The notes under the pieces are model-generated. The model worked only from the letters and a program-made list of their open reading frames with translations, ran no database searches and was not told where the DNA came from. Positions 29,896-32,122 of a DNA stretch of 41,666 bases are shown piece by piece; the stretch's first letter is position 1, and the number at the start of each line of letters is the position of its first letter. This stretch comes from Candidatus Levyibacteriota bacterium (GTDB taxonomy: Bacteria > Patescibacteriota > Microgenomatia > Levybacterales > UBA12049): positions 1-41,666 of the forward strand of contig JACQHJ010000009.1 of NCBI GenBank assembly GCA_016199085.1, read 5' to 3'. The position numbers and the translations under genes are program-made.

Positions 29896-29909
29896 TGGTA
29901 TAATACCAT
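29896..29909 (+). promoter_or_regulatory. Extended -10 (TGGTATAAT) inside palindrome TGGTAT-A-ATACCA, upstream of the protease cassette
   Basis: ctttggtataataccataccATG: TATAAT 29899-29904, TG at 29896-29897; ATG 29913. Confidence 0.6.
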
Positions 29910-29912
29910 ACC

Positions 29913-30104
29913 ATGCCAGAAGATAAAAAAATAAGATTTATAAAAACGTTCTCGAACTTACCATTAAATATTAGGAACGAAATAATATATGTTTTTCCTG
30001 ATAAAGGACCAATCACATGGAATGTGGCATTTATTGAAATCATAAACAATACTCCTCTTGGGAAAGAAATACTTGAAAAATTAGACAATCTTAACCTTAT
30101 ATGA
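29913..30104 (+). CDS. Small uncharacterised protein (63 aa), first gene of the cassette
   Basis: MPEDKKIRFIKTFSNLPLNIRNEIIYVFPDKGPITWNVAFIEIINNTPLGKEILEKLDNLNLI; promoter directly upstream; stop overlaps next start (ATGA). Confidence 0.7.
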   Translation: MPEDKKIRFIKTFSNLPLNIRNEIIYVFPDKGPITWNVAFIEIINNTPLGKEILEKLDNLNLI

Positions 30105-30334
30105 CAAACAAAGAAAGACAAAAAGAAATTATAGAATTAGTTAAAGCAAGGCTATCAATCTTACCTCCAGATGCAATCCTATCAGTTGGATCATTTGGGG
30201 AACTAAAAAAAGACCAAGTGATTAAAGAAGTTGAAAATAATACGGAAATAGGTAAAAAGATAGTAGAGGTGCAAATGGAATATTTACAAATGCTTAAAAA
30301 AGGAATTTTTTATGGCGAAGCTGCTAATAACTAG
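30101..30334 (+). CDS. Small uncharacterised protein (77 aa), second gene of the cassette
   Basis: MTNKERQKEIIELVKARLSILPPDAILSVGSFGELKKDQVIKEVENNTEIGKKIVEVQMEYLQMLKKG...; ATGA overlap with the upstream gene and a long overlap with the downstream gene. Confidence 0.72.
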   Translation: MTNKERQKEIIELVKARLSILPPDAILSVGSFGELKKDQVIKEVENNTEIGKKIVEVQMEYLQMLKKGIFYGEAANN

Positions 30335-30956
30335 GCCACTTTACGAAGGCACCACTCATTACTTATTTTTTTGGAGTAATACTGTAATCGAATTTGCGAA
30401 AACAAAATCTTACGACATTTTAGATCTAAAAATAAAAAAGGCCAACAGAAAAACCTTGGAAAGTTATTTAAGCAATAATAAGCCAAACTTCGTTATCTTA
30501 AATGGACATGGTTCTTCAGATCTAATTGCTGGTCAAGACGATGAGATAATAATTAAAGTCGGGGAAAATGAGAAAATACTAAAAGGAACTATTGTATATG
30601 CTTTATCCTGTAAAACAGGACAGATATTGGGTCCTAAAAGTATCGATGGAGGAACCATATCTTATATTGGATACAAAGAAGATTTTAGCTTTTGGGGAAA
30701 TTCAAGTTATACTGCGAGACCACATACCGACCCGAGAGCTAAGTTATTTTTTGAACCTTCAAATTTAATTCCATTATCTCTTCTTAAAGGACATAATGTA
30801 AGGGAAGCTTGTGAGAAAGCTAAAAACGCATTTAGAGAGAATGCAATAAAATTAATCACATCTGATTCACCAGATAAATTTGTTGTTCCAGATTTAATAT
30901 GGAATATGGTTCATTTATCAAGTTTTGGCGATGATAATGCTAAAGTAGAACAATAA
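30312..30956 (+). CDS. Putative caspase/gingipain-fold (clan CD, C25-like) cysteine protease
   Basis: PNFVILNGHGSSDLIAG (His-Gly block) and KGTIVYALSCKTGQILGPKSIDGGTISYIGYKEDF (strand then Cys block) fit the His/Cys dyad arrangement of clan CD. Confidence 0.7.
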   Translation: MAKLLITRPLYEGTTHYLFFWSNTVIEFAKTKSYDILDLKIKKANRKTLESYLSNNKPNFVILNGHGSSDLIAGQDDEIIIKVGENEKILKGTIVYALSCKTGQILGPKSIDGGTISYIGYKEDFSFWGNSSYTARPHTDPRAKLFFEPSNLIPLSLLKGHNVREACEKAKNAFRENAIKLITSDSPDKFVVPDLIWNMVHLSSFGDDNAKVEQ

Positions 30957-31000: not shown

Positions 31001-32122
31001 CTAATTCTTATTCCTTAAGAATGCGGGAATATCCCATGTGTCATCCTCTTCTTCCTCAACTGGCGGTTGAGGGGGGATGTTTTGATTTTGATTCGCGTTT
31101 GTCTGTTGCTGGTTTTGTACCGGCTCTTCTGTCTGGATTGGAGCAACAAACTCTCTAAGCACTTGTCTTGTCTGATCAAAACCAGTTGCAACAACTGTAA
31201 TTTTAATCTGGTCATGCATTGTGTCATCAATTGTTGCTCCAAAAATTATGTTTGCATCCGGATCTGCCTCAGAAGCAATGATTTTTGCTGCTTCATCAAC
31301 CTCTGACATTGTTAAATCAGGTCCTCCCGTAATATTAAACAAAACTCCCCTTGCTCCCTGCATTGATATTTCAAGCAATGGTGAGGAAACAGATGATCTT
31401 GCAGCAGTCTGGGCTCTGTTTTCTCCAACACCAGTTCCTATTCCCATAAGAGCAGATCCTGCATTTGCCATAATTGTTTTTACATCAGCAAAGTCTACGT
31501 TGATAAGACCGGGAAGAGTAATAAGTTCCGAAATTCCCTGAACTCCCTGGGTTAAAACCGAATCAGCAACCTTAAATGCTTCAAGTAAGGAAAGTTTTCT
31601 ATCAACGACGTCCAATATCCTTTGGTTTGGGATTACGATAAGAGTGTCAACTTTGTCCTTTAACTGCTCAATTCCGTCTTCTGCGGCAACCATTCTTCTT
31701 GTTCCTTCAAAAGAAAACGGCTTTGTAACAACGGCAACCGTAAGCACTCCTAATTCTTTTGCAGCTTTTGCAATAATAGGGGTTGATCCTGTTCCTGTTC
31801 CTCCGCCCATACCTGCTGTTAAAAAAAGCATGTCTGTTCCATTTATTAATTCTTTTATTTTTTCAAAAGATTCCTCAGCCGCTTCTTTTCCAATGTCTGG
31901 ATTTCCACCACTCCCAAGTCCCTTTGTTAAGTTTTCGCCTATCTGAAGTTTTGTAGCCGCCTGATTTAGTAAAAGACTCTGCGCATCAGTATTAACGGAG
32001 ATAAAATCGACATTTACAATGCTGTTTTGCGAAATCATTGTATTTAAGGCGTTTGATCCCCCGCCACCAACACCCATTACTCTAATTTTTGCAAAGTTGG
32101 TTGTCTGTGGTTTTATTAACAT
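31001..32122 (-). CDS. ftsZ: Cell division protein FtsZ
   Basis: [18 protein letters not shown]...[25 protein letters not shown]...; C-terminal peptide [10 protein letters not shown]. Confidence 0.98.

What the first reader, a model, noticed from the sequence alone, without database searches (positions are those of the whole stretch)
29913..30334. The two small cassette proteins share a C-terminal motif (NNTx[LI]GKxI[LV]E)
63-aa: FIEIINNTPLGKEILEKLDNL. 77-aa: VIKEVENNTEIGKKIVEVQMEYL. The NNT-x-[LI]-GK-x-I-[LV]-E core appears in both adjacent proteins at a similar position and predicted helical context. This suggests duplicated small domains that could homo- or hetero-oligomerise or recruit the protease, in the way effector-associated or death-like adaptor domains do.
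Basis: partly seen in the sequence, partly recalled or inferred. Interest (0 to 1): 0.7.

Follow-up and report, generated by a model that had tools for sequence, protein, structure and literature searches.

The report
Caspase-like protease with two small partners
Two tiny neighbouring proteins in this ultra-small bacterium turn out to be old copies of one undescribed domain that nearly always sits beside, and once inside, a caspase-like protease in uncultured bacteria and archaea, so together they look like a compact suicide or defence switch.

Summary
The motif is real. The 63-aa and 77-aa proteins share a C-terminal two-helix element, E[IV]x3[TD]x[IL]GKxI[IL]. The literal NNT is shared only by the window and its two closest relatives (3 of 71 77-aa homologues). 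Direct similarity is modest but non-random. Distant archaeal and viral cassettes carry a bridging domain that matches both families, one of them as a tandem pair, so 63 and 77 are most likely ancient paralogues.

They precede a 214-aa unannotated peptidase with invariant His66/Cys100 and a confident caspase-type (clan CD) model closest to SAVED-CHAT, gingipain and Craspase. The strict order 63-77-protease recurs across Patescibacteria and DPANN archaea. In one archaeon the small domain is fused to a caspase-like domain. All three genes are under purifying selection. The protease is often broken or lost while 63 and 77 survive, and a phage carries an orphan 63.

Best reading: a toxin-antitoxin-like protease module in which the small pair binds and restrains the peptidase. 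An activating adaptor is the main rival. Membership in the death-like or EAD families is not supported. Mechanism and trigger are inferred.

The parts
29896..29904 (+). extended -10 promoter TGgTATAAT of the operon; start codon 8 nt downstream, so the first gene is probably leaderless
   Evidence: sequence; among bacterial homologues 39/71 first genes have a -10-like hexamer 6-20 nt before the start versus 8/71 in a control stretch, and 4/71 have a Shine-Dalgarno-like stretch
29913..30104 (+). 63-aa small protein, first copy of the protease-partner domain
   Evidence: ORF; homologues in 35/374 genomes of the class and 63 genome contigs; dN/dS about 0.04-0.21
30045..30077 (+). NNTPLGKEILE motif of the 63-aa protein
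   Evidence: sequence; family consensus N[ND]TxLGKxIL
30101..30334 (+). 77-aa small protein, second copy; alpha, beta-hairpin, alpha-alpha in the model of its L046 homologue
   Evidence: ORF; 9/9 same-order orthologues; AF2 pLDDT about 85-91 in the 77 half
30236..30268 (+). NNTEIGKKIVE motif of the 77-aa protein
   Evidence: sequence; G invariant in 71 homologues
30312..30956 (+). 214-aa caspase-fold (clan CD) cysteine peptidase, His66/Cys100 dyad; overlaps the 77-aa gene by 23 nt
   Evidence: 48-sequence alignment with invariant H66 and C100; AF2 pLDDT 97.7; Foldseek to SAVED-CHAT 1.6e-6, gingipain, Craspase, caspase-11

Best explanation
The two small proteins are ancient paralogues of one undescribed small domain that is the dedicated partner of a caspase-fold peptidase; the three genes form one operon. 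I think it works like a toxin-antitoxin or abortive-infection module. The 63/77 pair, made first from the operon, binds the peptidase through the helical hairpin that carries the T/D-x-I-G-K motif and keeps it inactive. Loss, titration or a trigger (for example phage infection) frees the peptidase, which then cleaves cell proteins and stops growth. Shown: homology of the two domains (by bridging sequences), strict linkage, cis-fusion in one archaeon, catalytic dyad, fold (model), purifying selection. Inferred: direct binding, inhibition rather than activation, the trigger, the substrate and the toxic outcome.
For: Order 63-77-peptidase in 73 of 90 non-redundant loci. Starting from the peptidase, which avoids selection for 63, all 19 DPANN loci examined have 63 and 77. 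In the class every peptidase without a neighbouring 63 lies at a contig end. Bridging domain matches both families. Tandem domain in L165, cis-fusion in L169. Asymmetric decay: about ten loci have a broken, truncated or absent peptidase with 63 and usually 77 intact, and one more has lost the catalytic His loop. Peptidase-less pair upstream of AbiEi/AbiEii-like genes, and a lone 63 beside HicBA-like genes (my reading of the sequences). A phage contig carries an orphan 59-aa 63-like protein and no other part of the cassette. Sporadic distribution: 10% of the class, 3% of the phylum, 11% of a DPANN phylum. All three genes dN/dS about 0.02-0.2.
Against: No biochemical or toxicity data. Two distant archaeal peptidases (L163, L164) lack the domain and are preceded by a carboxypeptidase-regulatory-like protein instead. 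Broken peptidase genes in metagenome assemblies may be sequencing errors, and the longest gene is hit most often: with no bias, 0 broken 77 among about 10 lesions has p of about 0.05. Only one phage orphan was found, with limited scan sensitivity. Leaderless order and overlap fit any operon.
Confidence: 0.45

Rival explanations
1. Activating adaptor: 63 and 77 form a sensor or scaffold, as death-fold or EAD adaptors do, that clusters and switches on the peptidase when a signal is met.
For: Two paralogous small non-enzymatic domains in one operon with a caspase-like effector follow the EAD principle (PMC7159879, PMC8195603). The domain is fused to ligand-type beta-sandwich or PEGA domains in archaea. 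Loss of the effector with sensors retained can also happen.
Against: No match to EAD, death-like or EACC1 families in Pfam at E <= 1. No variety of effectors. A phage carrying only 63 fits an inhibitor better.
Confidence: 0.3
2. Zymogen and substrate: one small protein is the dedicated substrate, whose cleavage releases an active fragment or an anti-sigma-like factor, as in Craspase-Csx30.
For: Structural resemblance to Craspase TPR-CHAT; obligate co-occurrence.
Against: The most conserved part of the small proteins is the helical hairpin, and I noticed no conserved exposed linker or cleavage site (not tested). Orphan 63/77 pairs persist without the protease.
Confidence: 0.1
3. Housekeeping regulated proteolysis, perhaps in cell division, since the cassette lies beside ftsZ in the window and several other genomes.
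For: ftsZ within 4 kb in the window, L065, L067, L097, L099 and L100; the label needs four changes on the peptidase tree for the loci that could be placed.
Against: More than 90% of loci are elsewhere, the cassette is absent from about 90% of genomes of the class, and flanks otherwise share few recurring genes. An insertion hot spot explains the ftsZ cases.
Confidence: 0.1
4. The motif match is coincidence or convergence of two unrelated helical proteins.
For: Direct profile-profile probability is only 17-58%. The 63-aa half of the AF2 model is low confidence.
Against: Bridging domains match both in one register; tandem copy in L165; permutation controls.
Confidence: 0.05

Closest known systems
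EACC1-caspase and EACC2/TRADD-N-caspase two-gene conflict systems (Kaur et al., PMC7159879, PMC8195603)
   Same: A small constant component encoded beside or 5' of a caspase-superfamily peptidase; sporadic distribution
   Different: No EACC1 or EAD match in Pfam; EACC1 has a TM helix and its caspase carries highly variable C-terminal domains, whereas here the peptidase is a lone 214-aa domain with two paralogous partners and lives in CPR and DPANN rather than multicellular bacteria
SAVED-CHAT (PDB 8tl0) and Craspase TPR-CHAT proteases
   Same: Best structural matches of the peptidase model; His/Cys dyad after two successive core strands
   Different: No SAVED or TPR domain, no cyclic-nucleotide or CRISPR genes noticed beside the cassette, no sequence-family match
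Gingipain (C25), caspases (C14), legumain, separase
   Same: Clan CD fold and dyad order
   Different: Minimal single domain, no Pfam C14/C25/CHAT match for the CPR family (the distant viral homologue gives a weak C25 match, E 0.015)
Type II-like toxin-antitoxin and AbiE modules
   Same: Small genes upstream and overlapping, toxin-like gene last, antitoxin-like genes retained when the last gene is broken, phage-borne orphan of the first gene
   Different: The candidate toxin is a caspase-fold protease and there are two paralogous partners

Membership tests
Clan CD (caspase-fold) cysteine peptidases | His followed by Gly after one core strand and Cys after the next | tested here: met
   NGHG with H66 after strand 60-64 and SC with C100 after strand 94-98, both invariant in 48 sequences
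Clan CD (caspase-fold) cysteine peptidases | Caspase-like alpha/beta/alpha fold | tested here: met
   AF2 pLDDT 97.7; Foldseek hits to CHAT, gingipain, caspase, legumain, separase
Clan CD (caspase-fold) cysteine peptidases | Proteolytic activity | not testable with these tools
   needs purified protein
Named Pfam peptidase families C14, C25, CHAT | Profile match above the curated cut-off | tested here: not met
   none of these families appears among the matches of the 48 members at E <= 1 (25 of 31 families shown, all weak)
EAD / death-like adaptor domains | Profile match to a described EAD or death-like family | tested here: not met
EAD / death-like adaptor domains | Same small domain coupled to several different effectors in one system or genome | tested here: not met
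   domain seen only with this caspase-like family, with beta-sandwich additions, or as orphan
EAD / death-like adaptor domains | Copies in adjacent genes are each other's closest relatives | tested here: not met
   motif identity within a genome 2.90 of 11 versus 2.81 between genomes; 63s group with 63s
EAD / death-like adaptor domains | Homotypic interaction | not testable with these tools
   no complex prediction available
Toxin-antitoxin modules | Small gene(s) and toxin gene co-occur in a tight operon | tested here: met
Toxin-antitoxin modules | Toxin growth arrest neutralised by antitoxin | not testable with these tools
   needs expression tests
63-aa and 77-aa proteins as one domain family | Significant similarity beyond the motif or through intermediates | tested here: met
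   bridging profile p 2.3e-5 and 2.8e-10; virus 66-aa protein matches both profiles
63-aa and 77-aa proteins as one domain family | Same fold | tested here: inconclusive
   77 half confident, 63 half pLDDT about 50-59

The most novel reading that the evidence does not exclude
A previously undescribed programmed-death or antiviral protease switch shared by CPR bacteria and DPANN archaea, in which a duplicated small domain restrains a minimal caspase-fold enzyme, and which phages counter by carrying a copy of one restraint protein.
Probability: 0.35. Interest if true: 0.82.

Novelty: new variant of a known kind. Interest (0 to 1): 0.62.

Why it matters
Known defences are scarce in CPR bacteria and DPANN archaea: a 2026 survey finds DPANN poor in restriction-modification and CRISPR and richer in compact systems (PMC12988326). 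A three-gene, about 1-kb protease switch with its own adaptor domain, unrecognised by Pfam, NCBIfam, PADLOC and PHROGs in the searches made, would add a minimal system for genomes that cannot afford large ones. It would also give a natural caspase-adaptor pair, including tandem and fused forms, for studying how caspase-fold enzymes came to be held by small helical partners.

Tried and rejected
Pfam, NCBIfam and PDB sequence searches of the window proteins or their alignments gave nothing informative; PADLOC was run on the peptidase and PHROGs on all three. Plasmid searches with the peptidase family found nothing. Folding 63 and 77 together: MAFFT kept placing the 77s onto the 63 half or splitting the rows, so the model, a read-through 63-77 fusion of L046 made only for modelling, used only 77 rows and left the 63 half unreliable. 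Foldseek with that model gave nothing significant (prefoldin-like hits at E about 1). The second 63-like hit in L095 proved to look like a winged-helix protein. A function tied to ftsZ was considered and set aside as a likely insertion hot spot. The perfect palindrome GGTATAATACC at 29897-29907 was considered as an operator but is not evident in relatives. The idea that 63 and 77 are recent copies or exchange sequence within a genome was rejected.

Full report
OBSERVATION. A third gene, a 214-aa protein at 30312-30956, overlaps the 77-aa gene by 23 nt. The genome (0.94 Mb, a Patescibacteria-type genome by its relatives) holds one copy of the 63-aa gene and of the peptidase. The literal similarity exceeds shuffled expectation but is short: BLASTP 9/24, E 4e-4; 17 of 3000 shuffles reach 7 of 11 identities.

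CONSERVATION. Homologues of the peptidase were found in 8 of 82 genomes of the order; of the 63-aa protein in 35 of 374 genomes of the class; and of the peptidase in 37 of the same 374. A scan of 85,000 species genomes with the 63-aa alignment returned 63 loci, all but a few labelled CPR bacteria or DPANN archaea. The order 63-77-peptidase is kept in nearly all: 73 of 90 non-redundant loci are complete. Starting from the peptidase, 19 of 19 DPANN loci examined have both small genes, and in the class every exception is a contig end. All three genes show dN/dS of about 0.02-0.2. The motif is conserved in both families in relaxed form, T/D-x-I-G-K-x-I-L/I, but NNT itself is common only in the 63s and present in just 3 of 71 77s.

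ARE THE TWO SMALL PROTEINS RELATED? Direct tests are suggestive: hhalign p 1e-4 to 1e-3; 0 of 200 column permutations and 2 of 200 block permutations reach the observed score; cross-profile AUC 0.94 against other ORFs of the loci. That last background is mostly spurious ORFs and the sequences are related, so the p-value there is not to be taken literally. Intermediates settle it better. In Halobacteriota-type relatives of the Methanoperedens locus, distant peptidase homologues are preceded by a 125-aa protein with the domain twice (L165), a 113-aa protein (L161), or a transthyretin-like/domain fusion (L162). A Methanofastidiosa virus, vir519, has a 66-aa protein in front of a distant peptidase with a C-terminal hydrophobic segment, and this protein matches both the 77 profile (E 2.4e-7) and the 63 profile (E 8.7e-5) in the same register (E-values for a single-sequence search). 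A profile of only these five distant domains matches the 77s (p 2.8e-10) and the 63s (p 2.3e-5), and 59% of the 63s score above the 99th percentile of shuffled 63s. I therefore take 63 and 77 as ancient paralogues, not a recent duplication: within a genome they are no closer than between genomes. The fold of the 63-aa protein remains unproven.

THE PEPTIDASE. Forty-eight sequences keep G65-H66-G67 and C100 invariant. AlphaFold2 gives pLDDT 97.7. Foldseek places it among clan CD enzymes: SAVED-CHAT (1.6e-6), gingipain RgpB, Craspase TPR-CHAT, caspase-11 and -4, legumain, and more weakly separase. No Pfam family matches consistently, and PADLOC gives only scattered weak hits.

LINK BETWEEN DOMAIN AND PEPTIDASE. 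Besides operon linkage, one archaeal protein of 479 aa (L169) carries PEGA, a caspase-like domain with a His/Cys pair, and the motif domain at its C-terminus. This Rosetta-stone fusion is the strongest evidence that the domain acts with the peptidase. No fusion to any other effector was seen. Two distant peptidases (L163, L164) lack the domain.

HOW IT PROBABLY WORKS. Two readings fit: restraint (antitoxin-like) or activation (adaptor-like). Restraint is favoured by three facts. The peptidase is broken or lost in about ten loci where 63 and usually 77 stay intact, and one more has lost the catalytic His loop; the reverse was not seen, though length bias and assembly errors weaken this. Orphan 63/77 sit next to other TA-like genes by my reading. 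A phage contig with terminase- and portal-like genes (my reading of the ORFs) encodes a lone 63-like protein, as expected if it neutralises a host suicide system. In bacteria the 63 gene is usually leaderless, with a -10 element just before its start (39/71 versus 8/71 in a control stretch), so it is probably made first. Trigger, substrate and outcome are inference.

KNOWN SYSTEMS. The layout resembles the EACC1-caspase and EACC2/TRADD-N-caspase systems and follows the EAD principle (PMC7159879, PMC8195603), but the family tests fail (see membership table). It works like these or like a toxin-antitoxin pair; it is not shown to be a member. A literature search found no description of this cassette in the open-access library used, which does not hold most subscription journals.

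Noticed in passing
window 31001-32122 with 29913-30956; L065, L067, L097, L099, L100: The cassette lies directly beside ftsZ in the window and near it in five other loci; the label needs four changes on the peptidase tree. Likely an insertion hot spot at the end of the division cluster, but a functional link is not excluded.
   Followed up: partly
L122 4998-5177 (IMGVR_UViG_3300002460_000115): Phage contig with terminase-, portal- and GroEL-like genes and many sugar-modification genes encodes an orphan 59-aa member of the 63-aa family.
   Followed up: partly
L123 4705-5648 (BK063666.1): A virus of Methanofastidiosa carries a two-gene version: 66-aa partner plus caspase-like protein with a C-terminal hydrophobic segment.
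   Followed up: partly
L161, L163, L164 (archaea): Distant peptidases with pre-peptidase C-terminal (PPC) domains, or preceded by carboxypeptidase-regulatory-like proteins in place of the small domain.
   Followed up: no
window 29896-29907: Extended -10 TGGTATAAT overlapping a perfect 11-nt palindrome GGTATAATACC, 5 nt before the first start codon; a leaderless first gene is common in bacterial relatives.
   Followed up: yes
L089 4384-4968: A Woesearchaeota peptidase has lost the catalytic His loop (NGHG) while keeping the Cys and both small genes: a probable pseudo-enzyme.
   Followed up: no
L048, L077, L085, L095; L042, L051, L060: RadC-like genes recur near the cassette in four loci and AbiE-like gene pairs in three others, by my reading of the sequences.
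   Followed up: no
BFVD A0A8S5MXG5, Myoviridae sp. ctWaE18: An uncharacterised 320-aa phage protein matches the peptidase model by fold (E 1.5e-5).
   Followed up: no
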